The position numbers and the translations under genes are program-made. The notes below the pieces were generated by a model. That model was not told the origin of the DNA. It made no database searches and saw nothing but the letters and a program-made list of their open reading frames with translations. Below, piece by piece: positions 12,682-31,837 of a DNA stretch of 64,000 nucleotides (the stretch's first letter is position 1; every line of letters begins with the position of its first letter). Origin of the DNA: Anthracocystis setariae (Eukaryota > Basidiomycota > Ustilaginomycetes > Ustilaginales > Ustilaginaceae); the NCBI GenBank assembly GCA_928724745.1, contig CAKMXJ010000042.1, positions 434,001 through 498,000 on the forward strand, read 5' to 3'.

Positions 12682-12687
12682 TTAACC

Positions 12688-13317: not shown

Positions 13318-14147
13318 TGTTAGTTTCTGCGTGCGTCTAATCACTATTGCGTGGTGGGTAGACGTTCGAAGATGACTGCAAACACGCAAGGGCGCGTGTT
13401 TGCCACGTTCCTTGACTGACTTCAAGTTGTCCGAGTAGGCGCTGTAGGCTAGGAAGCTTGGTAGGTTACTACGTGAGAGACAGACACGCAAGCCTGCGTG
13501 TTGGTATGCTTGGTTGTACGTTAGGAACACACCTCGCTGGTTGATGATTCGATGGATTTCCGATTACCGCACAGTGAAATGCAACCTCTATATATACATA
13601 TGGCGTGAGCAGACGTATACGGCTAAGTGACGACCATCGTCGCTATAGCCTTACTCCAGAAGGTCCCATGACCGACGAGTGTTCGTTGCTAAACACGCAA
13701 TCCTTGCGTGTCTTTCCTCCTCGTTGGGGACATCACCGCGTGTCTCGTTTGTTGCCCTTTTCTGATTGGTTCGGCCCGACGTGGTCCGCAAATGGGGTTC
13801 ACCCTTGATTATGAGGGTTACCCATCATCGTCACGGAAGATGGCCTCCAGTGTGCCTCGAATCTGTGGTGATGGGTGAGATACCTAGGGGAGTGTTGCGG
13901 TCAAACACGCGAGCTCGCGTGTATGGTCACCAGCTTGCTCGACTGTTCGGCAGCGTTGTATTTCCAGGGTCTACCCCCTTGATATTTGGGAAATTAATTA
14001 AGTTCGTTCCTTCTTAACGTGCGCGCGCGTACCTTGTGGGTTTTTCATCTTGAGTCGTTGAACCCAAACACGCAAGCTTGCGTATTTGGTGCTGTTGAGC
14101 GAGATACTCTGAGTGCGAGATGGCTTTCGGAACACCGAGTTCCAACA
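13318..14147 (-). repeat. 3' LTR of copia B
   Basis: 830 bp, TGTTAG...TTCCAACA on the plus strand, flanked outside by TGCTC. It holds five AACACGCAA-type palindromes and TATATATACATA near 13594. It keeps CpG at all four sites where the other LTR has TpG or CpA. Confidence 0.93.
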
Positions 14148-14158
14148 GCCCCCCTCAT
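14148..14158 (-). other. Polypurine tract of copia B
   Basis: Minus-strand GATGAGGGGGGC abutting the 3' LTR. Confidence 0.65.
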
Positions 14159-14211
14159 CGAGTACTCACTCACACAGCACAGGCAAATCACATAGGGAAA
14201 GAATTGCAATA

Positions 14212-15465
14212 CTACAGGCGGGAACCAGAAGACGTACTTGATGTTTTCTTGGAGGAGCGCTTCTTTCGGCCTGACTTCTCGCGCTTCTCCAAGGTCTTAC
14301 GGACCGTACCAGCGATGCGGATGATGTTGGTAGGGTCGTAACACTTCGGCACCGGCTTGTTGAGGGACTGAGCCGTAATCGCCTCCTTTGCCGCGTCCTC
14401 GAGCTCTTCCAGTTGCTCGAGGGCCTCGTCGAGTAAGACCATCTTCTTGGTCCTAACGCCCGTGTAACCGTTACCTCGGCATAGCTTGCCAGCCACAATG
14501 CAGTGGTCGCATTGGTGGGTGGCCGGCGTTCGGGGGCGGCCCTTGTGGTTCGTGCCAACGCCATACGTGCAATGGACGTTGGCCTGGACACAAGGAGTGC
14601 ATCCTGGTGTCGAAGAGAGGAATCCTTCCTCTAGATGTTCCGAACGGGCGGGGAAGTCGGCCACCACGGCTCTGACAGACCCCGCCGGCACGACGAAGCG
14701 GTGTTGCTTGTCGAGCGACTTCTCCTCGTCCAAGGGCCCGGACCATGCTTGATGAGAGGGGAGGGGCCACTTGATGCCGCCACCCGGGACTTGAGGGCTT
14801 GAGGCCGGACGGCGAGGGAAGAGGTGAGCGTCGGCTGCCGGACGGTCAGCTGAGCTCACTCGTGATGAGCGACGGCGAATGGGGACCGGCCCGTTGTCGT
14901 CGTCGTCGTCGTTGTTGTCGTCGTGGGGGATGACTGGAGCATAATCTTCCTCCGAGTCAAAGCCTCCCAATTGGTCAGATCCGTCGCTGATCCGTAGGAA
15001 CAAAGGCCGAGGCCTAGCGACGTTGTTGGTGCTGGCCGTCGGTGGCGCAGCAGCTGTCTCGCTCGTTGGAGCGGAGACTCGAGTGACGGTACCCCTTCTT
15101 GGTACGTCCGGGGGCAGCAGATCGTGGATGGTCATGCTAGGTGTAGCAGAGGACCCGATGTTGATGGAGGGCGCACCTTCGTTGGTGGCCGCGACGGAGA
15201 GATTGGTCATGTCTTCGGCGACAGAGGACCGCGGAGATGGTGGACGTGCCACGCCCTGGTCGGCAGGCACAGGGGAGTTGGAGGAATGAGCCATGCCGTT
15301 GTTGGCAGAGGGCTCGTCGATATCCATGGCTACGTCGCCAGAGGGATTGGATGTTTCGGTTGCTGGCGTTGGCACAGCGTCGGGGATGGTGTTAGCACGA
15401 AGGCGCTTGCGAGCCTCCGTTGCTTTCTTGATGGATGCGCGTTGCTTGGCGCTAAGACGTGCCAT
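14212..15465 (-). CDS. Copia B second ORF (ORF2): Zn2Cys6-like protein
   Basis: 417 residues downstream of pol in the sense direction. The start at 15465 (MARLSAKQRASIKKATEARKR) is chosen because the copia C homologue begins the same way (MGKRLSQAKRDALAKANEARR) and upstream residues are not alike. The order is a basic N-terminal helix, a conserved AMDIDEP motif, a low-complexity acidic middle, the block WPLPSHQAWSG...RFVVPAG, and then a cysteine cluster with spacing C-x2-C-x6-C-x19-C-x2-C-x6-C (GCTPC ... HC ... QCDHC ... LCRGNGY). Last comes a helical segment (LEQLEELEDAAKEA) and a lysine/serine tail. The 2-6-loop-2-6 spacing is that of fungal Zn(II)2Cys6 DNA-binding domains apart from the long loop. 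There is no signal peptide or membrane span, so it is not an env. The function is unknown; a sequence-specific DNA-binding role is inferred. Confidence 0.8.
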   Translation of the reverse strand: MARLSAKQRASIKKATEARKRLRANTIPDAVPTPATETSNPSGDVAMDIDEPSANNGMAHSSNSPVPADQGVARPPSPRSSVAEDMTNLSVAATNEGAPSINIGSSATPSMTIHDLLPPDVPRRGTVTRVSAPTSETAAAPPTASTNNVARPRPLFLRISDGSDQLGGFDSEEDYAPVIPHDDNNDDDDDNGPVPIRRRSSRVSSADRPAADAHLFPRRPASSPQVPGGGIKWPLPSHQAWSGPLDEEKSLDKQHRFVVPAGSVRAVVADFPARSEHLEEGFLSSTPGCTPCVQANVHCTYGVGTNHKGRPRTPATHQCDHCIVAGKLCRGNGYTGVRTKKMVLLDEALEQLEELEDAAKEAITAQSLNKPVPKCYDPTNIIRIAGTVRKTLEKREKSGRKKRSSKKTSSTSSGSRL

Positions 15466-15889
15466 GTCGATGGTTGGCGACGTTGTCGTTGGTGGTGGTG
15501 GTGGAGAGAGAAAAGGATCGTGAGAGTTGAGTGAGCTACTTCGGGTGTGATGCAGCTCTCGTCTACAACCCCTTTGTGTGCGGCTGAGCGTGTGTGATTG
15601 GGTTATCTTACAACACTCAACGTTGTGTGTTGCGGATTGCGCCTCCACGCTTTGTGAAGCGGATGTGCCGATATGAAGTCCGTGGCGGTGGCGCAGAACT
15701 TGGGGATTGCGTGTAGTTAATTCCGGAAACACGCGACGTTGTGTTTTTGGTGCTGAGTTGTCAGCTTAAGATCTTTTCCGTGTTTTTTTTTTTATTTGGT
15801 TTTCTTGAAGTTTGTATGTTCTGTCGGTTCTGTTAAAGTCGAGTCGGGTCGGGCGAGTATGTACAAGGTTAACACGCAACGCTTGCGTG
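15466..15889 (-). promoter_or_regulatory. Copia B spacer between pol and ORF2
   Basis: 424 bp holding three family-specific palindromes (about 15612, 15728 and 15871) and a T-rich run (A-rich on the coding strand) at 15782-15795. It is the likely location of any promoter or processing signal for ORF2. No clear TATA is seen. Confidence 0.4.
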
Positions 15890-18687
15890 TTATTCCGCAG
15901 CGTCGTTTGCTGGAGATTTGACGTTTAGCGCTTGACGATTTGCTTGAGTCTTGTTCTTCTCCAAGGCTTTCGTTAGTATATCGGCTAGTTGGTCAGTAGT
16001 AGACACGGCTTTTACCGTCAGGACGTTGTTAGTTTGGTATTCGCGTGTGATGTGATACTTAAGCCTGAAGTGTTTGGTTCGATTGTGAAATCTTGACTCC
16101 TTTGCGAGCTCGATCGCTGCTCTGTTATCGACCATGAGTTGTGTGGGTGTCTCTACTTTGAGTCCTATCTCGGCTGCTACCCATCGTGTCCAGATGATCT
16201 CTTTGGTAGATTCGGCCATTGCTACGTACTCAGCATAAGTCGTTGAGTCTGTGACGATGGACTGAAGTTTTGAGAGCCAGCTGTATGGCATACCCGCGAC
16301 GGTGTTAACAATTCCCGAGGTTGATCGCGAAGTAGCAGTGTCCCCCGCGTGATCTGCATCGGTGAATGTTCGAAAATAACGTCCGAAGTCAACACGCAAC
16401 GTTGCGGGGTTGAGATCAGCGATGCGGGTGTAGTGCAGACCGTGGGAGGCCGTGCCCTTGAGGTATCGGAGCAAATGCTTTGCTTGCACCATGGCATTAT
16501 GGTGTGGTTGCGAAAGCTCACGACTGAGTTTCTGAACTGCATAGGCGATGTCGGGGCGTGTACAGGTTGCAATGTAAAGGACCTGGCCGACGAGACTTCT
16601 GTAGGTAGAGTGTTCGGTGGGCGAAAGGGGATCTCCTTCTTTGAGGTCGTGAGTTGGGTTGATGGGTGTATGCGTGATGTTTGCACACGCAAGGCCGTAG
16701 GTTTCCAGAAGTCGATGAATGTAACTCGTCTGTGTCAGATGAATGGTTTGTGCGGTTTGGACGACTTGGATGCCTAAGATGTAGTCCAGAAGTTCACCAC
16801 CAGTCATCTTAAAATGTCTGCGAAGTTCCTCCATAACACTTCGGGCCGAGTCTTGTGTTTTAGCGAAGATTAAGATGTCGTCGACGTATAGTGTTAGGAT
16901 GATGGGTTGCTCTTCAACACGCGACGTTGCATGTTTGAAGTAGAGGGCTGAGTCGTGCTTGCTACGTGTAAAGCCCATTTCATGTAGTGTGGAGTCGGCT
17001 TTGTGGTACCAGGTCCGACCAGCTTGCTTGAGTCCGTACAACGACTTGTTGAGTTTGCAAACCTGGCCTTGGGTGGTGCCCCGAGGGTCGTCGATTGTGG
17101 GTGGTGGCCTCATGTATAGGTCCACATCGATCTCGCCGTTCAAGTACGCGGTAGCCACGTCCATCTGATAGATGCTCCAACCCATTTGCAATGAGATGAT
17201 CATGAGGAACCGCAAGGTGGATAGTTTGATAACTGGTGCAAAGGTTTTGTTGTAGTCGATCCCGTGTTTCTGGGCGAAGCCTTGTGCCACGAGGCGAGCC
17301 TTGTACTTGTCAATTGAGCCGTCGGATTTACGTTTCACCTTGAAGACCCACCTGCTCCCAATGATGTTGGCCCCGCTAGGGGGCTTTACCAGACGCCAAG
17401 TATCGTTTTCGCTGTGAGAGTTGAGTTCTTTGTCGATAGCTTCTTTCCATAGCGGCCAGTCTGGGCGTTGATGGGCTTGCTTGATTGTTCGAGGTTCGTC
17501 GTCGAGTAATCCAACGCTGTCTGGTTCGTCAACACGCAATGTCGCGTGTTCCAACTCATCGTTGAATTCTTGAATCGCGAGGGCTTGTAGACGCGGCGAC
17601 GTCGGCGGGGAACCTAGCGGGGTTGCCAGTCCTTGTTCTCTTTCTTGTTCGGTGAGGTACGGCCACCTGCTAAAGCTGCCATCGTTCCCTTCGTCATTTC
17701 CTTGACTTGGAGCTTGCGTGAGCGGGGCAGGCTGCTGTTCCGAACTCCAGACGTTGCGTGTTGGCAAACCGAGTTGTTTTTCTGGAGATCCTTTATAGGG
17801 GAAAAACTCTTCGTCGAAAGTTGCGTGCACTTGTGTCAGGTACTTCCTTTCGACGTGATCGTACAACTTATAAGCCTTAGTTCCTGCTGCGGTCCCTAGG
17901 TAGACACATGGGACAGCTCGGTTGTCAAGTGCGGACCTCCTCTCCATCGGTATGTGGGCATATGCTGCACAGCCGAAGGTTCGTACGAGGGAGAGATCTG
18001 GCGATTTGTCGTACAAGAGCTTGATCGGGATCTTGTCGCCGTTTCCCTTCGTTGGAAGTCTGTTGTTTAAGTAAGTCGCATGAAGTAAAGCGTCGCCCCA
18101 TAGTGTGTCAGGAGCATGGGATTGTATCAACAAGCAACGTACTGTGTTGAACAACGTTCTGTTCATTCTTTCCGCAACACCATTCTGTTCGGGTGCAAAT
18201 GGGGAGGTGAACTCATGTAGGATTCCGTGAGAAGCGAGGAAGGTATCCATTTCCGTACTTGTGTACTCTCCTCCGTTGTCGGATCTGAGCTTCTTGAGTG
18301 GATATCCGGTTTGCTTTTCCATGGTCGTTTTATACTCCTGGAGGCAGCCGAACACCTCACTTTTGCGGGCAATCAGGTACACCATCGTGTGTCGAGAGAA
18401 GTCGTCGATGAATGTGACTGCGTATCTGTATCCTTGAGGGGTTTCGGTGGGGATCGGTCCTTTGACGTCTGTGTGGATTAAGCCAAGTGGGTGTTCAACA
18501 CGCGACGTTGCGTGTTTGAACGACTGCTTGTGGGACTTGGCAATCTCGCAAGTCTCGCAAAGTTGATGTTTTTTCTTTGCACTCAACGTGATTGCTGGGA
18601 CCTCTCTTGCAATTTCTTCTAGACGACGTTCTCCAGGGTGGCCGAGACGCCTGTGCCATCGATCAGGCCCTGCCTTGTGTTCTGCGG
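15890..18687 (-). CDS. Copia B gag-pol, C-terminal part (integrase, RT, RNase H; interrupted by gypsy B)
   Basis: This continues the frame of 35388-36879 after gypsy B is removed. In order it has the integrase zinc region and CETCEIAKSHKQ, the integrase core (HTDVKGPIP, RSDNGGEY, PEQNGVAERMN), the LLDDEPRTI linker, reverse transcriptase (WVFKVKRK, ATAYLNGEID, YVDDILIF), and RNase H (FTDADHAGD, STTYAEYVA, DNRAAIELAK). It ends at a TAA at 15890. About 932 codons lie here, and the joined ORF is 1429 aa with no stop or shift. The window's copia A matches it closely. As it stands, the protein cannot be made from one transcript because of the 16.7-kb insert. Confidence 0.93.
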
Positions 18688-18692
18688 CTAGT

Positions 18693-19051
18693 TGTTAAGC
18701 TCCTGGGGTCTTAGAACCTCGGAACGTGGCGGTGCGTCTGTATCGAGGCCAGGGGCGTGGTACCGGGTGTTGTTCCCGGGATCGTTGCCTAGATAGCGGA
18801 GCGGGTGAGCGGGAGATCGGGAGAAGGTCTGATATTTCCACCTACTATAGTGAGTAAGCTAAAATACAATCGACGTCTTAACGTGAGCGTGGTGGAATCA
18901 GGACGTGGGATTATGTGGTCTCCCGGATACCCCCCGGGAGATGCCGCAGTCTGCCCCGATCACCGATCCGGGTCTATATCGGGGGGAACTACCCCCGCCC
19001 ATGTTAATACTAAGACCGAACACTAACTCTCCCGATATCCCAATCGTAACA
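18693..19051 (-). repeat. 3' LTR of gypsy B
   Basis: 359 bp, TGTTA...TAACA, apparently identical to 35029-35387. It is related to but distinct from the gypsy A LTR. It carries the same self-primer word, read on the plus strand as TACAATCGAC at 18865-18874. Confidence 0.92.
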
Positions 19052-19068
19052 TTACCCCCCCCCCCCGG
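19052..19068 (-). other. Polypurine tract of gypsy B
   Basis: Twelve C on the plus strand (G run on the coding strand) abutting the 3' LTR. Confidence 0.75.
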
Positions 19069-19251
19069 GAAGGCCGACGTCCTCGTGGCCTGCTAGGTAC
19101 TCCCGGGTCTTAAGCTTCGCCCGGGAGGCTCCCGGACCCACCACGCGTGGTCCGCGCTGAAAACAAAGGGGCCAGGAACGAACGCTTTGTGTGCCTGGCG
19201 GGGCGTGCGCGGCGGAGCGTGCGCAGCGGGCTGAGCGCTAACTTCTCTTTT

Positions 19252-19259
19252 GTATATAA
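19252..19259 (+). promoter_or_regulatory. TATA box of gypsy B antisense gene
   Basis: TGTATATAAG at 19251-19260, 83 bp before the ATG at 19342, followed by a CT-rich leader as in many fungal promoters. Confidence 0.65.
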
Positions 19260-19341
19260 GACTCGCCTCGCTCCCGTTCCTGGTTCCTTCCCTTCCCCCA
19301 CAACCTCGTTCCTCGACGCCCGGAACATTATTTCCCTCAAG

Positions 19342-21984
19342 ATGCCTGGTAAGTACCGTCCGGGACCCGGGAGGCGGGTTAAGAACATGTGCTGACGTTC
19401 TCTTCTTTTTGCTTTTACCGCAACAGCAACAAGATCCTCCACCCGGCGAGGTGGCTCCGGCGCTGGGGTGTCGGGAGGCTCTGCCCCCGCCCCCGGCGAC
19501 AACAATGACGTGGACGAGTCCCGGGGCGTTGGTGCCCCGGAGGTAGTGGACGAGTCCCGGGGTGTGAGTGCCCCGGAGGTTGTGGATGAGTCGGGTCACT
19601 ATGTGGCCCAAGAGGGAGACGTAGTCTCCCTGTACGTGGACGAGTCCCCCGTGCTCCCGCGCGGGGAAGCTGACCCCGATTTGGTCCCGGGTGTCAGGGG
19701 TGTGGACGAGTCCCCGGCGCAGGCTTCGGCCTCGCACCGGGAAGATAGGCAAAGGGCTCCCGGTCCCCCGGACAATGGCTCCGGCAGCGTGGTGGTCCCC
19801 CCTAGTGGGGCTACCCCCGGGTCCTCGAACGTGGCCGCCCCGACTCCCGGGCGTGGCGTACCGATCGGGGATCCCGGTAGGCTGGCGGAGCTGGTCCGGG
19901 AGGTGAGAGCGCGGGGTGCCCCTCCTGCTTCGGAGGGGTACGGGCAGTGCTGGTCTTGCGCAAATAGCAAGAAGAAGCCGCACCCGCAATGCTCCCTGGG
20001 GTTCGCTCACCGGGACGTCGGGGGTCCGGAGGACTGTTGAAATATATGGTCACCTGCTGCGTCAGCTATCGACGTGACACTACAGACGTCGGTATGTCCA
20101 TAACTAGGGCGGTGATATTCCGACATAGTTGCCGACAATACAGTTCCTCGGGACTCGGCAGCGGGGAAACTATGCGCGTGCCAATGCCAATGCTGGCACT
20201 GTGCGTTCCCACGTGACGTTGACATGGTGCCTCATCACATCTCTGACCGGGATGTTACTCGTCGGGTCATGTTATTGTCAACATCGTTGTTTATGTTGAT
20301 GATCAACTGTTGTTTACACTTAGCGTAGAATCTTGTCACTAACGTCGACGCTATGGGGTTCCCTACACCGCTACGGGCAACAATGGTGTAGGGGACTAAG
20401 TGTATTTATAGGGCGTACTTCGAGCGCACAGTTGATGATCCCTTAATCGATTCATTACCAACTTCTCCGTATCATAACGCCTGCTACTTACAGATCCTTA
20501 CCAACGTCGCTACTGTTGTATCGACATAGGTCTCTCCCCTTCGTGCCTGCTGCTTAACGTCACCGCCCACTCTTGGTTACGGATCTAACTGGCCTGACAT
20601 AACAACAGAGCCAGCTCTATACGCCCATCCACCAGTGTGAGGTCTATAGCGACTTAGCTACTTGTTATAGTATCTTTGGCAGACGATAGACTCATCGTAC
20701 CTGGCTGCCTACCGTCAAGGTCGCCCCTTGACGCAGTCGACTTCCAATAAGGACCCCCGGGACGGTCAGCCTGCCGCGTGTGAGAGGTGCCATGTCGCGG
20801 GGTATCCCTGTGACTGGCAGGGGCGCGTCCCGGACATTACGGGACGCCAGGAGGGTGGCTTCCTCATGGAGGCTTATCTCACCCTCCGGGCCCGGGGTCA
20901 ACGTCCGAACCCCGGGATGCCCTTCACCTCGTTCTCCGCGGCCGACCTCCCGGACTACCTGGCGGCCGAGTACGCCCCCGCGCGTGCTTGGTACGAGGCT
21001 CGGCGTCAAGCCAAAGCGGGAAGTCGTCCCCGGGCTCCCGAGTCTCCCGCTGGGCCGTCTACCGGTGGGGGCGGCACTGCCCCGGGCTCCCGGCCCCCTC
21101 GGGGTCAACGGGGGTGGAAACAAACCACCCTCATCCCCGACGCTCCCTTGGCCCTGCGCCAGGTTTGTCCCTTCGATGCTCCGGGGGACCAACATATGGC
21201 CGGGGCCCGGGAGGCAGCATCCCACGCGGCGGGAGTTATCGCCGCGCTGGTGCAGGTCCTTCGCCGGACCGCTGCTGTTGGGGCTGAGCGTCGCCTGGAG
21301 TGGTCCTCCCGGGACGAGAGCATCCTCCGTTACCTGGAGGGTGTGAGTGGTGCTTTCGAGAGCATCACCCGGGAGCTTGGCGTCCCGCTCCCTCCCCCGC
21401 CCCCCGTGGTGCCTGTGCCTGCCCCTGTCCCTGTCCCGGCTCCCGCCCCTGCCCCTCACCTTGTGGCGGCTCCCCGGCGACCCAACGCCGAAGCTGGGCC
21501 GTCTCGCCCCCGGGGTTCTCCTCTTCCGGGTTATACCCCGGCAACCCCGGAGATGGCCCGTGCCAAAAGGCAGGGTCCCGGGACGCCATCGCGGGAACGC
21601 GCTCCCCGGGCGAGTGGCTCCCGGCCTCAGACGGGGGGAAAGCGCCCCCCTCAGACGGGGGGTAAGCGCCTCCCGGGGAGCTTCCAAACGGGCGGGAAGC
21701 GTCTCCCGGTGGGTGGGCTCCGCCCTCCCTCTCCCGAACCGGAGAGGCGTGCCCAGCGCCGCCGTGCTCAGGCGGTGGTGCGGGACATGCGGGCCCCGAT
21801 CCGTGCCCGTCGTCGGGGCAGCTCCCGGGACAACTCCCCGGGCGACTCCCGCGACGAGGAGTCCTTGGGGGCGGAGGAACGCAGCCGGGAGTCCGGGGAG
21901 GACTCCGACGAGGATGTGGTGATGGTGGACTCGGACGTATACGAGTCCCGTCCCCGCACCCCTCCTCGTAAGAAACGGAGGTAG
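19342..21984 (+). CDS. Antisense spliced gene of gypsy B (interrupted by solo LTR)
   Basis: Homologue of 10148-12033. Exon 1 is 19342-19348 (ATGCCTG). The intron 19349-19426 (78 nt) starts GTAAGT, has CTGAC near 19392 and ends ACAG. Exon 2 is 19427-20034 and, after the solo LTR, 20755-21984. Without the insert the frame is open for 614 residues. The insertion falls exactly on a codon boundary, between the first three and last three cysteines of the Zn2Cys6-like motif (CWSC...QCSLGFAHRD | CERCHVAGYPC). Read through, the protein would end two codons into the LTR. The tail SDEDVVMVDSDVYESRPRTPP is conserved with gypsy A. Conservation of the tiny first exon and intron in both copies supports a real gene. 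Confidence 0.75.
20035..20749 (+). repeat. Solo LTR, probably copia type
   Basis: 715-bp insert that begins TGTTGAAATA and ends CTTCCAATA, flanked by the 5-bp duplication AGGAC (20030-20034 and 20750-20754). The terminal bases resemble those of the copia LTRs here (TGTT...TTCCAACA), and TGTATTTATA at 20401 could be its TATA. There is no coding capacity. Internal sequence is unlike the other LTRs in the window, so it represents a further family. The orientation is uncertain. Confidence 0.75.
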
Positions 21985-22069
21985 GAGCCCGGGAGTTTGG
22001 TCTGGTCGTGTGTCCGGGGTCATTAGGACCCTGGGAATGAAATTGTGTTTACCTCGAGTTCCCGCGTGT

Positions 22070-22323: not shown

Positions 22324-24071
22324 TCAGCAGTCCCGGGAGCTAACTTGGCTCCCGGACTGCCGCCGATGGAATTCCTGGAGCAACTCCTGGCTATTCTCTA
22401 GGTGAGCCGCTGGCTCCCACGTAGGTTGGGTGTAGCCTGCCCACTTCACCCGGTACTGCCGCCCCCGACGTGTCTCCCGGGAAGCCACAATATCTTCCAC
22501 TTCGAAGTCCTGTCGGTCGTCCTCCAGGCGCCGGGACGTCGGGGCGTGCTCGGAGGGCCGGGTGTCCGGGGAGTGCGGTTCCAGGAGGCTGACGTGAAAC
22601 ACCGGGTGGATTTTCCAGGCGGGCGGGAGGTCCAACTTGTAAGCCCGGGAGCCTACCGCCTGGAGGACACGAAACGGTCCCGCTAACGGATTCCCTAGCT
22701 TCCGGGATGGTCGATCTTGACGCAGATGTCGGGTGCGGAGTAGCACCATGTCACCCCCGGAAAAAGACCGGTCCATCCTGGAGCGGTTTGCGTATCTAGA
22801 CATCAGGGTGGCAGCGTGGTTAATGTTGGTCCGGCAGTGTTGGAGGAGTCCCCGGAAAGCCGAATCGGAGGGCGGGATGCCATCCGGGGAAAGGGCTGGT
22901 GACCCGGGGAGGGTTTTCGGGGTGAAACCAAACAGGGGTAGGGTGGCCGGTAGCCCGGTAGTAGCTGACATTCTATTGTTTAGCGTAAGTTGGGCGTACG
23001 GTAACCAGGACGCCCAGTCGTCCTGCTGGTAGTTGACATAGAATCGGAGGAAAACCTCTAGATTTTGGTTAACACGCTCGGTTTGGCCATCTGTCTGGGG
23101 GTGATAGGCTGTGGAGAGGGCCGGGGTGGTCCCGAGGGCTGTTAAGATATCCTTCCACAGGGACGCTACAAAAGTGCGCCCCCGGTCCGACACGATGGCG
23201 TCCGGGAGTCCAAAATAGGCAAAAACGCGGGAGAACAGCATGTGGGCGAGATCTTTGGCCGTATCGGACTTCCGGGCCGGGAGGAAAAGGGAGTACTTGG
23301 TGAGACGATCGACGACGACGAGGATGGAGTCGAACGTGAGACCACCGACCCGGGAAACCGGGAGACCCTCAATATGGTCCATCGTGATGGTCCCGAACGG
23401 CCGGGTCGGGGCGTCGAGCGGGAGCAGCAGTCCGTAAGGCTTATGCCGGGGCGCTTTAGCGCGCTTACAGGCTCCACAGGTCCGAACGTATTCTGTGACA
23501 TCGTGCTTGAGATTGGGCCAGGAATGATGACGACGGACCAGTTCCAGGGTAGCGGCCACTCCCGGGTGTCCCGCCGTCGGGTGGTCGTGATAGCGCTCTA
23601 GGATTCGTTTCACTTCGGCGGGGGACGCGGGGCTGGTCGGGAGCGGGTCGGGGCCCGGGGCTACGTCCGATATCCGGTGCGCAGCCGGTGTTCGTTGTTC
23701 CGCCAGCCCGGAATCCTGGAACAGGTCAGGGGGTAGGAGGACCGCGACGTTAGAGGGGTCATGCTGATGATTGGTGGTGGTGGTGTTGGGATGACCATCG
23801 GAGCGCCGGGACAGAGCGTCTGGGCGGGTTGCCTGGGTCCCGGGTCGGTACGTAATGGTAAACGTGAACTCCCCGAGAGCCATGCTCCACCGGGCCTGCC
23901 GCCTGTTAAGTTGCCGTTTCGTTTGGAAATATTGGAGGGCCTGGTGGTCGGTGAGCACCTCAAACGGCTCCTGGAGCCCGTGGAGGTAATGTCTCCATTC
24001 CTGCAACGCATCTACGATTGCTAGGAGTTCTTTATCGTGGATTTCGTAATTACGCTCTGCGGGTTGCATCT
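22324..24071 (-). CDS. Gypsy B gag-pol, C-terminal part (RNase H, integrase, chromodomain; interrupted)
   Basis: 580 residues starting just after YWSRKM of the N-terminal part. It has RNase H (HDKELLAIV, LTDHQALQYF), the integrase HHCC region (TCGACKRAKAP), the DDE core (MDHIEGLP, VSDRGRTF, QTDGQTERVNQ), and a C-terminal chromodomain (YRVKWAGY...TWEP). With 31838-34981 it makes exactly 1628 codons, the same as gypsy A. The break is caused only by copia C, whose duplication CATCT lies at 24067-24071. Confidence 0.93.
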
Positions 24072-24857: not shown

Positions 24858-26246
24858 TTAATGACCCGAAGTGTGTGAACCAGAAACGTGAGCAAACCTA
24901 TTTCGAGGACCGGGAGCCTCGCGCTTGTCGATGAGTTCTTCAGCTTGGCCAAGGAGTTTGATGAAATATGACGGGTCCCATTTCTTTGGCGTTTGCTTTC
25001 CGGTCCTCGAGGCAACGATCGCATCAATGCAGATCTCCTTCGCTTCGTTGAGCTTGTTCCGAAGGTCGTCAATGGTAGCTATCTTCTTGGTTCTCTTACC
25101 CTCGTATCCTAATCCGCGACAAGGCTTCGAAATCACCATACAATGATCGCAAGACCCGCGGGCGGGGTCTCGCTTTTTCCCTTGATGATTAACCCCGGCG
25201 CCAAATGAGCAGTGCACTCCAATGAGTTGGCACTCTTGACAGCCGGGGGTTACGACCACGAGGTCGGGGTGGTGAGGTTGTTCCAGTCGAGTGAAGTGCC
25301 GACGTGAGTTTAGCACTACTCCAGCTGGAACAACGAATCGTTTTTGTTTTGACAGTGGAACCCCGGGTGTGGGTGCCCCGGACCATGCCTGGTGCGGGGG
25401 AAGGGGGTGTTCCACTGTGCCACCAGCCGGTTGGACTTTGTCGGCCTCGAAGTTTGCTTCAGAGGCCGCGATGGCGTTGGCGGCAGCTCCGACGATACGA
25501 TGACGAGATTGACTCGTCGTTGCTTCCACCAGCTCGATTGCTCGAATGGGGTTGGTGGTTCTTGCAGCGTGACCGTTGGTGATTGGCCCTTGTCCGTGCT
25601 CGTTTTCGCTGGCGCGATTGTACGCCGGATCCTCTTCGTAGTCCCCGTCGGCAAAGGAGTCGTCCGAACCTAAGAAGAGATCCCTGTCCTCGGTGGATGG
25701 GTCAGCTCTGGTCGATGAGCTGACTGGCCTCAGCGTGGGGAGGGGGCGAGGGCGTAGTCGGAGCGGGCGGTCGGCCGCACGGAGCACAGTCGCTGCGGAG
25801 GAGTCATCGTCGCCTTCGTTTGCGGTGACGATGGCGCTGATGCATGGCATCTCAGCGTCTTCGATTGCCGTACCTTGGTTGGTAGGCGACGTTGTTGGTA
25901 TGGGTGGCTCTTCGTTGGCGAGTCCACCTTCGGGTTCTTCGGCCATGTCATGGTTGACAGAGGGCGTAGCGTTGTCGGAAGATGAGGGGCCCTCGCCAGT
26001 TGGCTGAGAGGGCTGGTCGTCGACATCCATCGCCTCTTCTTGATCGTCTTGAGGGGAGGCAAGTATCGTATTCGTATTGGCCGTAGTACTGTTGGCGCTG
26101 TCGGCGGCAGGGTTGATGTCGGTAATGTTGATGTCGTGGTGGGCGTTGGCGTCGGATACCAGGGTTAATCCGGTGGTCTTCTTGCGCCTAGCCTCGTTGG
26201 CTTTGGCGAGGGCGTCCCTTTTTGCTTGGGATAGTCGTTTGCCCAT
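24858..26246 (-). CDS. Copia C second ORF (ORF2): Zn2Cys6-like protein
   Basis: 462 residues from the ATG at 26246 (good context, AAACGATGG). The frame is open further upstream to 26507, but homology with copia B ORF2 starts here. The plan is the same: basic N-terminus, EAMDVDD motif, acidic serine/threonine-rich middle, block HPLPPHQAWSG...KRFVVPAG, and a cysteine cluster C-x2-C-x6-C-x19-C-x2-C-x6-C (GCQEC ... HCSFGAGVNHQG ... SCDHC ... PCRGLGY). A helical segment (LRNKLNEAKE) and KKWDPSYFIKLLGQAEELIDKRE follow. Spacing within the cluster matches copia B ORF2 exactly, although the overall sequence is much diverged, so it is under selection. No membrane segment is seen. The role is inferred to be binding of the family's own palindromic sites. 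Confidence 0.8.
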   Translation of the reverse strand: MGKRLSQAKRDALAKANEARRKKTTGLTLVSDANAHHDINITDINPAADSANSTTANTNTILASPQDDQEEAMDVDDQPSQPTGEGPSSSDNATPSVNHDMAEEPEGGLANEEPPIPTTSPTNQGTAIEDAEMPCISAIVTANEGDDDSSAATVLRAADRPLRLRPRPLPTLRPVSSSTRADPSTEDRDLFLGSDDSFADGDYEEDPAYNRASENEHGQGPITNGHAARTTNPIRAIELVEATTSQSRHRIVGAAANAIAASEANFEADKVQPAGGTVEHPLPPHQAWSGAPTPGVPLSKQKRFVVPAGVVLNSRRHFTRLEQPHHPDLVVVTPGCQECQLIGVHCSFGAGVNHQGKKRDPARGSCDHCMVISKPCRGLGYEGKRTKKIATIDDLRNKLNEAKEICIDAIVASRTGKQTPKKWDPSYFIKLLGQAEELIDKREAPGPRNRFAHVSGSHTSGH

Positions 26247-26818
26247 CGTTTCCTGTTGGGAGTTGTCCGGATAGTGGGTGTTGAGAGAGGTGGTGGTGAG
26301 GAGGGTGGTTGAGACTAGTGTAGTGAGAGTCTCATCGTCGATTCTTGTTGGTGCTTCGATCCTTTGTGATGTAAAGCTTTGTTCGGCTTGTTCCGCGAGT
26401 GGCGCAGTGCAAGGTAAAAGTCCGCCGTCGGGTTCTGCAACCCGGTGATGAGTTCTGGTTGTTGCGCTGCACTTCATCTCCGTAGGTGTGATTGCGCAGT
26501 GTGACATATATGTGACTTGTGGTGTTAGTGGTAAATTTATTTGTGATTTCGCTTATCCGGGCCAGGGTCTTGGGATTTCTCGTCGGGTGTCAAGTCCCGC
26601 CGTCGGGTTTTGTGGTTTGCCAGGGTTCTCGTTATCCAGGGTCGCGCTTTATGCAGGGTCCACTTATTCTGTTGATTTTTATCGATCATTATTAATAATT
26701 TTTTTTTTTTTTTCTTTTTTTTTTTTTGGTTTTGATGTTTTTCGCGTCGAATCGTGAGTGTGTATGTACGGATCTTGATGATTAATTTATGGAAGGTGGA
26801 ACCCGTCGTCGGGTTTTC
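26247..26818 (-). promoter_or_regulatory. Copia C spacer between pol and ORF2
   Basis: Non-coding 572 bp with palindromes near 26421, 26596 and 26800, a long T-rich tract (26700-26729; A-rich on the coding strand) and CATATATG near 26505, which could serve as a TATA for ORF2. The A-rich tract has a counterpart in copia B (15782-15795). Confidence 0.4.
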
Positions 26819-29800
26819 CTAATTCGTTGGAAGTATGTGAAGGTTTTCGCGATTGACTCGAACTTTGTTCTTTTCCAGCGCTTTGGTCAAGATGTCGGCT
26901 AGTTGGTCTGTTGTTGAGACTGGCTTCACGATCAGTAATCCTTCTGCTTGGTATGATCGGGTAATGTGATACTTGAGGCGAAAGTGTTTGGTCCTGTTGT
27001 GGAATTTGGGTTCCTTGGCGAGTTCAATGGCAGCGCGATTATCCACCATCAGTTGCGTCGGGTTCTTGACTTTCAGGCCGAGTTCTTCGACCAGCCATCG
27101 GCACCATGTGATTTCCTTCGCTGCTTCGGCCATAGCTACATATTCGGCGTATGTTGTAGAGTCCGTGATGATGGACTGTAGCTTAGAAATCCAGCTGTAT
27201 GGCATAGTATTGACCGTGTTGACAATTCCCGACGTTGATCTCGAAGTTAGTGTGTCCCCCGCGTGATCTGCGTCGGTGAATGTCTGAAATAGCAATCCGA
27301 AATCAAGATTCACGTCGTGAATTGGAAACCCGACGGCGGGTTTATATTCGAGCCCGTGGGTTTCCGTTCCCTTGAGGTAACGTAACAGATGTTTAGCCTG
27401 AACCATAGCATTAGAGTGCGGGTTTGCAAGTTCGCGGCTGAGTCTCTGTACAGCGTAGCTGATGTCTGGCCTCGTACATGTTGCAATGTAAAGGATTTGG
27501 CCAACAATGCTCCTGTATTTGGAGTGTTCGGACGGCGAGAGGAGGTCTCCATCTGTCAGGCTGGCACTCGGGTTGAGCGGGGTGTGTACGATGTTGGCAG
27601 ATTCGAGTCCGTAAGTCAGAAGGAGCCGTCGGATGTAGCTGGTTTGGGACAAGTGTATGGATTCCGGCGATTGTTTCACTTGAATGCCTAGAATGTAGTC
27701 AAGCTGTTCTCCACCCGTCATCTTGAAGTGCTTCCTGAGGTCGTTCATTACGTTTTCGGCGAGGGGTTTAGAGCGAGCGAAGATTAGTATGTCATCCACG
27801 TAGATTGTGAGGACGAGCGGGTGAGTCCCGGACCCCGACGTCGGGTTTTTGATGTAGAGCGCGGAATCGTGGTTACTGCGCTTGAAACCCATTCCCCGCA
27901 AAGTCGAGTCTGCCTTTTGGTACCAAGTACGGCCAGCTTGTTTGAGACCGTACAGTGACTTGTTTAACTTGCAAAGTAGACCCGGAGCGTGAGGATCTGC
28001 GTCGGGTTCACGAGGTGGCGGTCTCATGTATATATCTTTGTCGATTTCGCCATTGAGGTAGGCGGTTTCGACATCCATTTGGTAGATAGTCAATCCAATC
28101 TGCAGGCTTAGGATCATGAGCAGACGGAGTGTCGCAAGCTTCACGACGGGTGCGAAGGTCTCGTCGTAGTCTATGCCGTGTTTCTGTGCGAATCCTTGTG
28201 CTACCAAGCGAGCCTTGTACTTGTCAATTGTTCCATCGCTTTTTCGTTTGATCTTGAAGACCCATCGACTTCCGATGACGTTTGCGTCCTTAGGAGGGGT
28301 CACGAGGTTCCAGGTGTTGTTGTTCTTGTGCGACGCAAGTTCTCTATTTACTGCCTGTTTCCACAATTCCCAATCGGGTCTTCTGAAAGCCTGGGTGATT
28401 GTTCGTGGTTCGTCATCGAGTAGCCCTATTGGGTCCGAATCGTCCAATCCCGACGTCGGGTCTTCGACCCCGTTGGTTTCTTCGAGGGCTGCGAGCGCGT
28501 CCAGGCGTGGTGAACTTGGTGGCGAACCAGGTGGAGTCTGGATTCCTGCCGCCCTTTCCTCTGGAGTAAGGTAGGGCCAACTGTTTGAGTCTTCCGATGT
28601 GTTCTCCTGTAGTTCGGCGTTTTGATGATTTGACTGGGGGGGGATATCGATTTCCTTCGTCGTTGTGTTAATTCTGGGCGGGTTTGCAAACCCGACGTCG
28701 GGTTTTGCAAACCGCACCGAACTTTCGGTATCATACGAGAAGGGGAAAGTCCCTTCGTCGAATGTTGCGTGGACCGTTGTAATATATCGATCTTCGACCA
28801 CGTTATATAACTTGAAGGCCTTCGTCCCTGCAGTGATGCCGACGTAGACGCATGCCAGCGCGCGGGGCTCCAATTTGTCTCTTCTCTCCTCTGGAACGTG
28901 TGCCCAAGCAGCACATCCGAACGTTCGAGCGAGGGAGAAGTCAGGTGTAATGGAACGCAACAATTGGATCGGGATCTTCATCCCGGCGCCCTTCGTTGGG
29001 AATCGGTTATTGAGGTAGACCGCGTGGAGGAAGGCGTCTCCCCACATATGATACGGTGAGGATGATTGGATCATCATGCAGCGAGCTAGGTCGAACAGGG
29101 TGCGATTCATTCGTTCTGCAACCCCGTTCTGTTCTGGCGTGTATGGAGCGGTGTGTTCGTGGATGATCCCATTTCCTCGAAGTAGCTCTGCAAGTTCTTT
29201 ACTCGTGTATTCGCCTCCGTTGTCCGACCTGACTCTTTTAATCAACTGGCCGGTTTGCTTTTCCATCAAGGTTTTGTACTCCAAGAAGTGGCCGTACACC
29301 TCACTCTTCCTTGTGAGTAGGAAAGCGACGGTGAATCTTGAGAAGTCGTCGATGAATGTGACAGCGTATCGGTGGCCTTGAGGAGTTTCGTCGGGCATTG
29401 GGCCCACGACGTCGGTGTGTACAAGTTCCAGGGGTTTTGTGGAACCCGACGTCGGGTTTCGAGAAAACGGCTGTTTATGCGATTTCCCGATCTGGCACGT
29501 CTCGCACTTCGCGGGTGTGCGTGGATTGAGAGTTACTTGGGGAACGACCTTCGCAATCTCTTCCAAGCGTGCTTGACCAGGGTGACCAAGGCGTTTGTGC
29601 CAGTTCGTGGTGTTAGCCTCGTGTTCGGCTGCAATTCCTGCAAAATCGGTACCGACTTGGTCGACATACGTGAGGGGTCCAATGTGGACGCCTCTGCATG
29701 TAATCCTGCCGTCTGTCGTTCGGGCGATGGTTTCACGGTCGTTTGTGACTATTTCTACCTTCTTCCTCATCACTCCTGTGGAGAGGAGGTTGACGCCGAA

Positions 29801-31126
29801 GGATGGTATGTAAGCCACGTTCGACAGTGTGATCTTGTTCGTTTTTCCTCGTCCGATATTGACTTCGAGGTCTACTGTGCCGAGTCCTTCGATTTTGACC
29901 GGAACTTCGTTTGCTACCCAGATGGGTCGCATGGTTACGCCGAGTTTAAGGTCCCGAAATAGGGTCTTGTTACAACAGATGTGTCGACTGGCACCCGAGT
30001 CCATTAACCACATTGTTGACCGCGGGTGTGTGAACTCACTAGCGGAGTAGACGTTATCGCGCCCGGGTTCACCAGTTTTGGTGTTCGGCTGGGAACCCGA
30101 CGTCGGGTTCTTGGGTTTCGGGCATTTGTTCGCATAGTGTCCCTTTTCTTGACAATTGAAGCAAGTGATCTTTTCGATTGGCGTTTTCGGCTTCGTCTTG
30201 GAGTTTCGCTTCGGGTTTCGTTGACCCTTCCGTTTGTTTTCTTGTCCGGCGTAATATGCCGATGACCCGACCCGGGTTCGCTGATGCATGCCCTGAACGT
30301 TGATACCAAGGCGCAATTCCTCGCTTCGCAGGCGGGTAACGATGTTGTCAAGCTCGACTTTCTCGTTAATGACGGCACTTTCGACAACCAGGGTCTCGAC
30401 TTCGTTATCGCCCCTTCGGACGATCATTTCGCTCGTTTCTCGTCGTGCTCGGTAGGTTTCCTCGATTTGTGCTCGGATGTTGTCGTAGTCCTTGCGGAGA
30501 CCTTTCATTAGCACGCTATACTTCTTGTTGAAGCTAATTGTAACGCCTGCCATGGTCAGCTGGTCTGACAGTTCGGTGATTCGGCTGACGAATCCGTCGA
30601 TGGTTCGTCTGTCTTGCTTGAGACTGTTGAGCTCCGTCTCCATTTCCTCGAGTTGCCATTTCATGGCTTTAGCGAACCGTTCTTCGAGGGTTTTCCAGAT
30701 TGTGTGCGCGTCTTCAAGGTCCGCAATAGTGTGTTTGATTTCACTAGAGAGACTGCTTCGTAGCATGCCGCAAGCGGTAAAGTTGGCGTTAATCCACTCT
30801 CCATATTTGGGGTCAGAGGCTTCAGGCCGGGGTAGCGTCCCCTTAATGATTCCATAGATTCGAGCACCCTTTTGCATAAGAATGTCGATGCATTGGTCCT
30901 TCCATTGGTAATAGTCGCGTGCCTGTGTCAATTTCGGCAATCCGGGGGAATTGTGCGGGACCCCGTCAATGGATTGCATGATTTCTTCGGTGTATTCGGA
31001 ACCCGTCGTCGGGTTCGGTAAGTTTCTTTCGGGGTTTTCGTGTTCTCCGGTGATCGAATCGACTCGGGAGCGAGATCGAGTATTCAAGTATATGTCGTTC
31101 GAGTTTCCAGCAGGCCTTGGGCTCAT
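26819..31126 (-). CDS. Copia C gag-pol polyprotein
   Basis: Intact 1435-residue ORF whose ATG (31126-31124) lies inside the primer-binding site. Gag has a UBN2-like retrotransposon domain (WKTLEERFAKAMKWQLEEME). A CCHC knuckle lies near 320 (CFNCQEKGHYANKC) and the protease MDSGASRHICC near 375. The integrase zinc region is near 509 (HKRLGHPG), with catalytic D near 570 (HTDVVGP), D near 635 (RSDNGGEY) and E near 665 (EQNGVAERMNR). Reverse transcriptase has YVDD near 1108, and RNase H has TDADHAG near 1282 and DNRAAIELAK. It provides all enzymes for copia transposition. Repeated NPTSGS/KPDVGF-type linkers between domains are encoded by the ACCCGACGTCGGGT word. Confidence 0.96.
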   Translation of the reverse strand: MSPRPAGNSNDIYLNTRSRSRVDSITGEHENPERNLPNPTTGSEYTEEIMQSIDGVPHNSPGLPKLTQARDYYQWKDQCIDILMQKGARIYGIIKGTLPRPEASDPKYGEWINANFTACGMLRSSLSSEIKHTIADLEDAHTIWKTLEERFAKAMKWQLEEMETELNSLKQDRRTIDGFVSRITELSDQLTMAGVTISFNKKYSVLMKGLRKDYDNIRAQIEETYRARRETSEMIVRRGDNEVETLVVESAVINEKVELDNIVTRLRSEELRLGINVQGMHQRTRVGSSAYYAGQENKRKGQRNPKRNSKTKPKTPIEKITCFNCQEKGHYANKCPKPKNPTSGSQPNTKTGEPGRDNVYSASEFTHPRSTMWLMDSGASRHICCNKTLFRDLKLGVTMRPIWVANEVPVKIEGLGTVDLEVNIGRGKTNKITLSNVAYIPSFGVNLLSTGVMRKKVEIVTNDRETIARTTDGRITCRGVHIGPLTYVDQVGTDFAGIAAEHEANTTNWHKRLGHPGQARLEEIAKVVPQVTLNPRTPAKCETCQIGKSHKQPFSRNPTSGSTKPLELVHTDVVGPMPDETPQGHRYAVTFIDDFSRFTVAFLLTRKSEVYGHFLEYKTLMEKQTGQLIKRVRSDNGGEYTSKELAELLRGNGIIHEHTAPYTPEQNGVAERMNRTLFDLARCMMIQSSSPYHMWGDAFLHAVYLNNRFPTKGAGMKIPIQLLRSITPDFSLARTFGCAAWAHVPEERRDKLEPRALACVYVGITAGTKAFKLYNVVEDRYITTVHATFDEGTFPFSYDTESSVRFAKPDVGFANPPRINTTTKEIDIPPQSNHQNAELQENTSEDSNSWPYLTPEERAAGIQTPPGSPPSSPRLDALAALEETNGVEDPTSGLDDSDPIGLLDDEPRTITQAFRRPDWELWKQAVNRELASHKNNNTWNLVTPPKDANVIGSRWVFKIKRKSDGTIDKYKARLVAQGFAQKHGIDYDETFAPVVKLATLRLLMILSLQIGLTIYQMDVETAYLNGEIDKDIYMRPPPREPDADPHAPGLLCKLNKSLYGLKQAGRTWYQKADSTLRGMGFKRSNHDSALYIKNPTSGSGTHPLVLTIYVDDILIFARSKPLAENVMNDLRKHFKMTGGEQLDYILGIQVKQSPESIHLSQTSYIRRLLLTYGLESANIVHTPLNPSASLTDGDLLSPSEHSKYRSIVGQILYIATCTRPDISYAVQRLSRELANPHSNAMVQAKHLLRYLKGTETHGLEYKPAVGFPIHDVNLDFGLLFQTFTDADHAGDTLTSRSTSGIVNTVNTMPYSWISKLQSIITDSTTYAEYVAMAEAAKEITWCRWLVEELGLKVKNPTQLMVDNRAAIELAKEPKFHNRTKHFRLKYHITRSYQAEGLLIVKPVSTTDQLADILTKALEKNKVRVNRENLHILPTN

Positions 31127-31130
31127 AACC
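31119..31130 (-). other. Copia C primer-binding site (half initiator tRNA-Met)
   Basis: GGTTATGAGCCC on the minus strand, immediately after the 5' LTR, complementary to the tRNAi-Met anticodon loop. Confidence 0.75.
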
Positions 31131-31837
31131 TGTAGAAGAATAGCAGATGAGGAATGACGGCCTTACGGCAAAGCCAAGAATAAGTAGTTAATTATGGCTT
31201 TTGAGCGTGACTTACGGAAGTAGGCGTCGGGTGATCAATCCCGACGTCGGGTTCTGACAAACTGCGGGTTTGTTAGAATCCCGGAAGTCTTAGGATGTCC
31301 GAACGTTATTTTTGTTGTTATTCCAAAGATCCACGTCGGGTTTCGTACGCTCACGTCGTCTTCGCAGAGGTAGGAAGCTTGAACGATAAATACTGTAAGT
31401 ACTTTGATGACTACTCGACGAGTTGTCGGAGAGAAGGTATGATAAGGGTAAATGGGGAAAAGATTCGATATATTTCAGATGCACTAACGGGTCAAGGCAA
31501 GAGGCACTTATATACATCTCGGGATGGCTCTTCATCCGTATAGCATAGGACTCCATCGTTGGGTGGAAGGGCTTTCCGTTCTCATTTGCGACGCATCCGG
31601 AATCAGCATAACCCGACCGCGGGTTTTGCGATTATGTTTCGAACCTTTTGTCTTTAGCCGTGTGTCTCGAACGCGTATGTTGGTTTCGGATGTTTTCTTG
31701 TGAAATCCTTCGCAGTTGTCCGAATTCGGCTAGAAGTGTGAACCCGCATGCGGGTTACAAAACCCGACCGCGGGTTTTGTTGCTGAGGTGTGAAATGCTC
31801 TAAGTGCGAGGCGATTTATGGAACCCGAGTTCCAACA
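31131..31837 (-). repeat. 5' LTR of copia C
   Basis: 707 bp, identical by eye to 24072-24778; flanked outside by CATCT. Confidence 0.95.

What the first reader, a model, noticed from the sequence alone, without database searches (positions are those of the whole stretch)
13318..31837. Candidate self-recognition system: element-encoded Zn2Cys6-like proteins plus family-specific palindromes dispersed in the element
Three element families here each encode an accessory protein with a Zn(II)2Cys6-like cysteine pattern, and each family is peppered with its own palindromic word (AACACGCAA..TTGCGTGTT, ACCCGACGTCGGGT, or TCCCGGGA-like). Zn2Cys6 proteins usually bind paired CGG/CCG-type half-sites, and two of the three words contain them. 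The word changes between families while its positions stay, as expected if protein and sites co-evolve. The closest known parallel is VANC of Arabidopsis VANDAL DNA transposons, which binds short motifs accumulated in its own element and removes silencing. I know of no such system in fungal LTR retrotransposons. Binding and the role (anti-silencing, transcription or copy-number control) are inference.
Basis: partly seen in the sequence, partly recalled or inferred. Interest (0 to 1): 0.93.

Follow-up and report, generated by a model that had tools for sequence, protein, structure and literature searches.

The report
Retrotransposons carrying private dispersed DNA words
In this fungal genome, several related families of jumping genes each carry many copies of their own short DNA word, partly at matching places but with different letters, and most of those families also encode a protein that could read the word; if it does, that is a self-recognition system of a kind known so far mainly from a plant DNA transposon.

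Summary
Copia families A and B in the window are peppered with a family-specific palindrome far above dinucleotide shuffles. A blind search of other copies found a third family (C) with a new palindrome and a fourth (D) with a looser one. In A, B and C, three palindrome centres inside pol coincide to the base although the words differ. Words lie in LTRs and coding DNA, in two or three frames, and silent positions inside them vary half as often as outside, so they act as DNA. A-D encode an accessory protein with C-X2-C-X6-C-X16-19-C-X2-C-X6-C; B's is under purifying selection.

Corrections: the gypsy TCCCGGGA palindrome is not above shuffles, but CCGGGA is (80 versus 25.5 expected). Zn2Cys6 membership fails Pfam's cut-off. 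Copia E has no accessory ORF yet carries the densest copia word, so the protein-word link is not strict. Copia F and a second gypsy-like piece show no clear word.

Best reading: element-encoded zinc-cluster-like dimers bind dispersed self-words, probably to activate or de-silence their own family. Binding and role are inferred.

The parts
13318..14147 (-). copia A 3' LTR (99.5% to 5' LTR at 36883-37713); 4 words
   Evidence: self-blast; edge and target duplication TGCTC read; words 13380, 13482, 13903, 14066
14212..15765 (-). copia A accessory ORF2 (517 aa frame; conserved ATG at 15465); words at 15611 and 15727 before the ATG
14479..14601 (-). A ORF2 cysteine domain C-X2-C-X6-C-X19-C-X2-C-X6-C
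   Evidence: residues 389-429; coordinates calculated from it
15890..18692 (-). copia A pol, 3' part; words at 16390, 16915, 17530, 17742, 18128, 18496; those at 18496, 17530 and 16915 are the sites shared to the base with B and C
   Evidence: matched to the columns through the 966/615/525 spacing of copy L019
35388..37713 (-). copia A, 5' part and 5' LTR, split off by the nested gypsy; words at 35833, 36716, 36946, 37048, 37469, 37632
1..3896 (-). second copia A copy (continues left of the window), 12 words within 6 mismatches
   Evidence: L019
24072..31837 (-). copia B complete element, LTRs 707 bp and 100% identical, target duplication CATCT, 19 words within 3 mismatches (both LTRs counted)
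24858..26552 (-). copia B accessory ORF2 (564 aa frame; conserved ATG at 26246)
25119..25241 (-). B ORF2 cysteine domain C-X2-C-X6-C-X19-C-X2-C-X6-C
   Evidence: residues 438-478; coordinates calculated from it
26819..31162 (-). copia B gag-pol, 1447 aa, 7 words
   Evidence: Pfam; words
29443..29458 (.). B word AACCCGACGTCGGGTT at alignment column 2032, same base as an A and a C word
28447..28462 (.). B word at alignment column 3091, same base as an A and a (weaker) C word
27832..27847 (.). B word at alignment column 3715, same base as an A and a (weaker) C word
4503..12684 (+). gypsy copy 1, CCGGGA/TCCCGG 10.1 per kb
10148..11977 (-). gypsy accessory ORF2, antisense to gag-pol, cysteine pattern C-X2-C-X10-C-X22-C-X2-C-X6-C
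18693..24071 (-). gypsy copy 2, 3' part (rest 31838-35387), target duplication CTAGT; antisense ORF2 interrupted by a 715-bp insert 20035-20749

Best explanation
These LTR retrotransposon families carry roughly 12 to 80 copies per element of a private short DNA word spread through LTRs, coding regions and spacers. In copia A-D the word is a 14-22 bp dyad. The words are binding sites for a sequence-specific DNA-binding protein and are kept by selection on the element. By coating its own copies from the LTR promoter through the body it most likely raises transcription or keeps host silencing off its family alone. As the domain's specificity drifts, the sites in the element shift with it. Shown: the words, their private distribution, homologous positions in A-C, constraint at silent positions, purifying selection on B's ORF2.
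For: Enrichment above shuffles in blind searches (best spaced dyad 15, 16, 15, 14 in A, B, C, D against 4-6 in four shuffles each) and above synonymous-codon shuffles (B 7 against at most 2; A 8 against at most 5, C 8 and 5 against at most 4 and 3, D 23 against at most 8 and 10). Word-by-family matrix: own word 14-17 (A), 21 (B), 12-15 (C), 27-30 (D), other words within the shuffle range except A and C, which share outer arms CAACAC..GTGTTG and are the closest pols (69.5% against 64.6-64.7%). Base-exact centres at columns 2032, 3091, 3715 in A, B and C, A-C also at 4240. Silent positions in words vary half as often as outside, common odds ratio 0.50, P 0.0007 over four families. Two of three U3 words persist in the variable promoter-side LTR. 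Sense-strand mismatches G.U 50 against A.C 97 argue against RNA pairing. Words occur on both strands in G (17/12) and gypsy (36/44). B ORF2 cysteine region dN/dS 0.08, tail 0.07, N-half 0.34. 208 B-word places genome-wide within 1 mismatch against 9 for the reversed control; 79 against 0 for the C word.
Against: Copia E encodes gag-pol only between its 148-bp LTRs yet has 64 TGCGCA in 4342 bp, so words can exist without ORF2. Copia F has a cysteine-rich ORF2 but no word in the 3 kb read, though that length also misses D's word. A second gypsy-like stretch (5 kb of L016) shows only a marginal word. Pfam Zn_clus is below cut-off and no significant solved-structure match was found. Few families, so co-variation of protein and word rests on few independent points. 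Over all positions, B words are not less variable than the rest of pol (15/112 against 692/4229, P 0.52); silent-site conservation is significant alone only in B (P 0.012; A 0.07, C 0.60, D 0.08). At a loose cut-off B pol words do not exceed the synonymous shuffle (9 against mean 6.9, maximum 12). C's words at columns 3091 and 3715 are at the 6-mismatch limit. D shares no exact position with A or C and one with B (P 0.04); 19 of 30 D sites in L031 are at the 4-mismatch limit and the D word was taken from these elements. The U3 word at +82 is no better conserved than its surroundings. Two remnant loci with ORF2 but no pol (L016, L020) show no family word. No expression, chromatin or binding data.
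Confidence: 0.58

Rival explanations
1. Host factor: the words are sites for host transcription or chromatin proteins that each family has separately recruited; ORF2 does something else.
For: Copia E has a very dense word without ORF2; transposons often use host factors (recalled).
Against: Words are private to families, at least 12 per element and spread through coding DNA; two host stretches of the window lack A-D words above shuffle. Of the 50 exact B-word places listed (a capped list), 48 lie in or within a few kb of copia B-type matches and the other two are spaced 651 bp as in copia B (compared by eye).
Confidence: 0.17
2. Same proteins and sites, other role: ORF2 binds element cDNA or chromosomal copies to guide nuclear entry, integration or copy-number control rather than expression.
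For: Sites run through the whole body, not only the promoter.
Against: Two of three U3 words are kept while the rest of U3 varies, pointing to a promoter role; the acidic, low-complexity N-terminal half resembles activators (recalled).
Confidence: 0.2
3. RNA-level palindromes: words dimerise or package the element RNA, giving family-specific co-packaging.
For: Palindromes in retroelement RNA can pair between molecules (recalled).
Against: G.U 50 against A.C 97 mismatches in the sense strand over distinct sites, opposite to RNA-pair tolerance, in each of the four families (related copies are not independent); non-palindromic words in G and gypsy occur on both strands.
Confidence: 0.05
4. Peptide-level repeats such as protease cleavage sites (NPTSG, HATSRV, HSVLSV) that happen to look palindromic.
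For: Several sites lie in linkers between polyprotein domains, the peptides recur within a family, and 18 of 23 D pol sites share one frame.
Against: The same words occur in other frames with other peptides (KPDVGF, TRNVAF), in LTRs and spacers; synonymous shuffles lose most of them; one B site, residue about 1106, lies inside RVT_2 948-1196.
Confidence: 0.04
5. Neutral or mutational word amplification, or a composition artefact of retroelements, without selection.
For: Most families examined show some enriched word, including E without ORF2.
Against: Aligned sites lack shared flanks and sit at base-exact homologous positions while differing in sequence; silent positions are conserved; three host stretches show only simple or short repeat-like words.
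Confidence: 0.07

Closest known systems
VANC / VANDAL anti-silencing system of Arabidopsis (PMC5735166, PMC10398659; passages read)
   Same: Element-encoded protein, short element-private motif at high density, motif and protein differ between families, variable and conserved protein regions.
   Different: VANDALs are DNA transposons (recalled); motif YAGTATTAY is non-palindromic, arrayed in one orientation, mainly in non-coding tandem repeats. Here: LTR retrotransposons, dyads also in coding DNA at fixed homologous positions, cysteine-cluster protein; binding untested.
Sirevirus repeated motifs (plant Ty1/copia; PMC2829016, section 9 read, passages)
   Same: Copia elements with 8-32 copies of an element-specific palindrome, 12 of 13 with a CGG-CCG core, in LTRs and before a 3' extra gene; the Usier word GTCGGACGTCCGAC resembles those of B and D.
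   Different: Almost all Sirevirus copies lie in LTR and linker (a few at the start of ENV), and no self-encoded binder was proposed in that section; here many lie inside pol and an ORF2 accompanies them.
En/Spm TnpA (named in a PMC10398659 passage; its repeated subterminal motif is recalled)
   Same: Transposon protein that activates its own silenced element.
   Different: DNA transposon with sites near the ends (recalled).
Fungal Zn2Cys6 factors of the Gal4/Leu3 type (recalled)
   Same: Six-cysteine pattern followed by a likely helix; dyad sites; B and D words contain CCG-N4-CGG, the everted spacing recalled for Leu3.
   Different: Loop of 15-19 residues between the halves, no lysine or arginine in the first six-residue loop of the window copies of A and B, Pfam score below cut-off; A and C words lack CGG.

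Membership tests
Zn2Cys6 (PF00172) | Pfam gathering score (21 bits) | tested here: not met
   best 13.1 bits, E 0.1, for the C-terminal part of B ORF2; A 9.5, D 9.1 bits; C and G no match
Zn2Cys6 (PF00172) | six cysteines C-X2-C-X6-C-loop-C-X2-C-X6-C | tested here: met
   A, B, C loop 19, D 16, G 15 residues; not the gypsy or F ORF; the usual loop of 5-12 is recalled
Zn2Cys6 (PF00172) | two-zinc cluster fold | not testable with these tools
   structure prediction switched off; no significant PDB sequence match for G ORF2 or the A+B profile
Zn2Cys6 (PF00172) | dimerising coiled coil after the cluster | tested here: inconclusive
   heptad-like tail seen by eye in A-C; tail dN/dS 0.07 in B copies
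VANC-like self-recognition | protein encoded by the element carrying the motif | tested here: met
   A-D and G; not met by E
VANC-like self-recognition | motif dense in own family and private to it | tested here: met
   matrix; genome count; A and C overlap in part
VANC-like self-recognition | protein binds the motif | not testable with these tools
   needs gel shift or DAP-seq
VANC-like self-recognition | loss of silencing on expression | not testable with these tools
   no expression or methylation data
VANC-like self-recognition | motifs in non-coding tandem repeats | tested here: not met
   dispersed, many in pol
VANC protein family | homology to VANC proteins | not tested
   ORF2 B: none of the 8000 scored candidates reached E 0.001; no direct comparison with VANC was made
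Sirevirus | palindromic repeats almost wholly in LTR and linker | tested here: not met
   seven B words inside pol
Ty1/copia | gag and integrase before RVT_2 in one polyprotein | tested here: met
   B; E

The most novel reading that the evidence does not exclude
A genome-wide self-word system: many LTR retrotransposon families of this fungus, copia and gypsy alike, each carry a private DNA word read by a self-encoded protein. It would be an allorecognition code among retrotransposons that decides which copies are switched on or spared from silencing.
Probability: 0.3. Interest if true: 0.95.

Novelty: new variant of a known kind. Interest (0 to 1): 0.86.

Why it matters
How parasitic elements tell self from host chromatin, and how such recognition changes over time, is known in detail from a plant DNA-transposon group. 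Here four copia families with four dyads on alignable pols give a direct record of sites rewritten at the same positions. The question of how a DNA-binding specificity and a dozen or more of its sites change together becomes testable with a few small protein domains and oligonucleotides. If E's word is read by a host protein instead, the same data would show retrotransposons recruiting host factors throughout their coding sequence.

Tried and rejected
Gypsy palindrome: TCCCGGGA and unspaced dyads are at shuffle level; spaced CCCGGG dyads exceed the shuffles, but the enriched unit is the hexamer CCGGGA. RNA pairing, peptide repeats and simple copying of words (no shared flanks among the aligned sites, by eye) were considered and set aside. 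Homologues of ORF2 B: none among the 8000 candidates scored from 5.8 billion proteins. NCBIfam: nothing relevant. Paper searches for fungal or retrotransposon self-binding systems showed nothing alike in their listings, which were capped in part (12 of 228 shown) or empty; 'not in print' rests on these open-access listings alone. Rows dropped: L016 (B-type ORF2 remnant in gypsy DNA) and L020 (A-like ORF2 remnant) lack pol and were left out of later copia counts; the first D locus, L029, first gave the word of a neighbouring A LTR. One search used 13 B copies, 11 copies, the 8 with both LTRs. One search stopped with an error after the B rows; one search repeated the test with fixed family words.

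F is not a clean negative: a 3-kb piece of the same layout also fails to show D's word and is borderline for A and C.

Odds changed after re-checking: the novel case went from 0.33 to 0.30 because the second gypsy-like piece, with only a marginal word, had been left out.
Full report
Setting. The window is G000:C36:434001-498000 of a 21.5-Mb, 36-contig genome; gene density, long intronless frames and genome size suggest a basidiomycete yeast or smut (inference, not tested). Positions 1-37713 are mostly nested LTR elements: copia A (13318-18692 and 35388-37713) is split by a gypsy element (18693-24071 and 31838-35387), which is split by copia B (24072-31837); a second gypsy (4503-12684) and a second copia A (1-3896) lie to the left. 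B and the nested gypsy have 5-bp target duplications CATCT and CTAGT.

Observation. B's word and A's word are far above chance in the window. The family palindrome is the top cluster in 12 of 13 B loci (not L016) and the window's B copy, in 6 of 7 A-type loci (not L020) and the window's A piece, and in 5 of 5 C loci; five shuffles each gave 1-2. For the D locus L029 the top cluster came from a neighbouring A LTR. Family C, not in the window, has ACTCAGTACTGAGT. With LTRs counted once and 60 shuffles per element, the representatives of A (3), B (1) and C (2) stay above every shuffle; D (2) is above only at the looser setting (6 and 10 against 3); gypsy equals its shuffle maximum; two host stretches show none. 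An exhaustive half-site search agrees: best spaced dyad 15, 16, 15 and 14 in A, B, C and D against 4-6 in four shuffles each, 6 and 7 in host stretches against 4-6.

Privacy. Scanning with half-site words and a free centre gives own-word counts of 17, 14, 15 (A), 21 (B), 15, 12 (C), 27, 30 (D); shuffle means are 0.05-3.5. Other-family counts lie within the shuffle range, except 5-8 C-type sites in A and 5-6 A-type sites in C, which share the arms CAACAC..GTGTTG. The words scanned were taken from these same families, so this matrix shows privacy rather than discovery, and 19 of 30 D sites in L031 sit at the 4-mismatch limit. A and C are also the closest pols (69.5%; A-B 64.7%, B-C 64.6%). D, 44-46% from the others, shares CCGACGTCGG with B. 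Genome-wide, B's word has 208 places within one mismatch against 9 for the reversed control, and the 22-bp C word 79 within three mismatches against 0.

Positions stay, letters change. In a codon alignment of pol, A, B and C have palindrome centres at exactly the same base at columns 2032, 3091 and 3715; A and C also coincide at 4240. For A-B, A-C and B-C the exact coincidences are 3, 4 and 3 against random means near 0.01 (P 0.0005, the floor of 2000 draws). At 2032 the C word is perfect; at 3091 and 3715 it is at the 6-mismatch limit. B and D share one centre, 2786 (P 0.04, not corrected for the pairs tested); D shares none with A or C. At column 3091 the three families read GAA CAT GCA ACG TTG CGT GTT, GAA GAC CCG ACG TCG GGA TTG and GAA CAT TCA GTA TCG GAT GTT. 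These look like homologous sites rewritten, not insertions.

DNA level. B's word is lost when synonymous codons are shuffled (7 observed, shuffle maximum 2). With fixed words, A (8 against at most 5 in three copies), C (8 and 5 against at most 4 and 3) and D (23 against at most 8 and 10) exceed every shuffle, but B at a loose cut-off does not (9; mean 6.9, maximum 12). Half-site hexamers give a mixed picture: all exceed the shuffle mean, but several for A, C and D stay within the shuffle maximum. Words use two or three frames, with 18 of 23 D pol sites in one frame. Silent third positions inside words vary less: B 6/35 against 523/1363, A 15/57 against 514/1321, C 8/57 against 240/1356, D 2/116 against 77/1381; combined odds ratio 0.50, P 0.0007, treating variable positions as independent. 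Over all positions B words are not less variable than the rest of pol (15/112 against 692/4229, P 0.52). Imperfect dyads carry more A.C (97) than G.U (50) mismatches in the sense strand, in all four families, the reverse of RNA-pair tolerance.

The accessory protein. A-D have an ORF after pol on the same strand, with C-X2-C-X6-C-X19-C-X2-C-X6-C in A, B and C and a 16-residue loop in D; G has a 15-residue loop. In A-C a heptad-like stretch follows, noted by eye. Among 55 pairs of 11 B copies, dN/dS is 0.34 in the N-terminal half, 0.08 in the cysteine region, 0.07 in the tail and 0.06 in pol; selection on the other families' ORF2 was not measured. Median dS is 1.1, 1.1 and 1.7 in the three ORF2 parts but 0.25 in pol. 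In 8 whole copies, mean pairwise nucleotide identity is 0.90-0.96 in pol, 0.60-0.79 in ORF2 and 0.68-0.84 in the first 600 nt of the LTR. So an old, diverse ORF2-plus-U3 cassette appears to ride on a homogenised pol. U3 words at about +62 and +213 are kept in all 8 copies while flanks vary (conservation 0.96 and 0.94 against 0.78; 93rd and 85th percentile of U3 16-mers); the one at +82 is not special (0.85, 59th percentile).

Other families. A search for RVT_2 finds 81 places, a lower bound, which I group by length and identity into at least seven copia families. E (L032) has LTRs of about 148 bp and no ORF between pol and LTR; antisense frames of up to 261 aa lack the cysteine pattern. Yet TGCGCA occurs 64 times in 4342 bp; in pol 61 against 17.1 in synonymous shuffles, maximum 28. 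G (L033) has the non-palindromic GAAGTC 17 and 12 times on the two strands; in pol 15 against 4.9, maximum 11. Gypsy has CCGGGA 36 and 44 times; in pol 18 against 6.2 and 26 against 9.1. F (3 kb only) has an ORF2 with C-X2-C-X11-C-X10-C-X2-C-X6-C and no word, but this length would also miss D's. A second gypsy-like stretch (5 kb of L016) shows one marginal 8-mer (score 12.7, shuffles up to 9.2) and no hexamer above shuffles. Counting A, B, C, D, F, G and the window's gypsy, six of seven families with an accessory ORF show a word, and so does E, the one family without.

Mechanism. Private, mostly dyad, strand-symmetric, silently conserved words rewritten at homologous positions are what sites of a specific DNA-binding protein look like. 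The element's own ORF2 is the simplest reader for A-D and G. Dispersal over the body and retention of two U3 sites fit activation or protection of the whole copy, as VANC does (PMC5735166, PMC10398659; passages only). Family E means that either its gag-pol, a protein from another element or a host factor reads its word; this is the main open contradiction.

Known parallels. Sirevirus repeated motifs (PMC2829016, section 9) are the closest cis parallel, VANC the closest trans parallel. I saw no report of this combination in nine paper searches of an open-access library; beyond the listings I read only passages of four papers and one section.

Noticed in passing
L032 (copia E), 147-4636: TGCGCA occurs 64 times in 4.3 kb, about one per 68 bp, in all three frames of pol, without any accessory ORF.
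   Followed up: partly
L033 (copia G), 5100-5999 of the reverse strand: Accessory ORF with CHTCRVGRHRC...CFWCYKKKRPC, whose basic first loop looks most Gal4-like (recalled), and a very acidic stretch; word CGAAGTCAC on both strands.
   Followed up: partly
copia B copies, first 600 nt of LTR and ORF2: ORF2 and U3 are about 60-84% identical between copies whose pol is 90-96% identical, as if an old variable cassette were kept on a homogenised element.
   Followed up: partly
window 10148-11977 and genome: The gypsy accessory ORF lies antisense to gag-pol and stays open in many of the 107 matches; relatives at about 32-41% identity exist elsewhere.
   Followed up: no
window 20035-20749: A 715-bp insert interrupts the gypsy copy 2 accessory ORF; its GC (0.50) and word density (1.4 per kb) differ from the gypsy.
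   Followed up: no
window 12578-13336: An ORF resembling a DDE (Tc1/mariner-type) transposase fragment lies between the gypsy and copia A (by eye).
   Followed up: no
window 38200-46000: Host stretch with an excess of ACTGTA and ACAGTA (13 each against 2.2 expected) and GTACAGTA, perhaps a small repeat.
   Followed up: no
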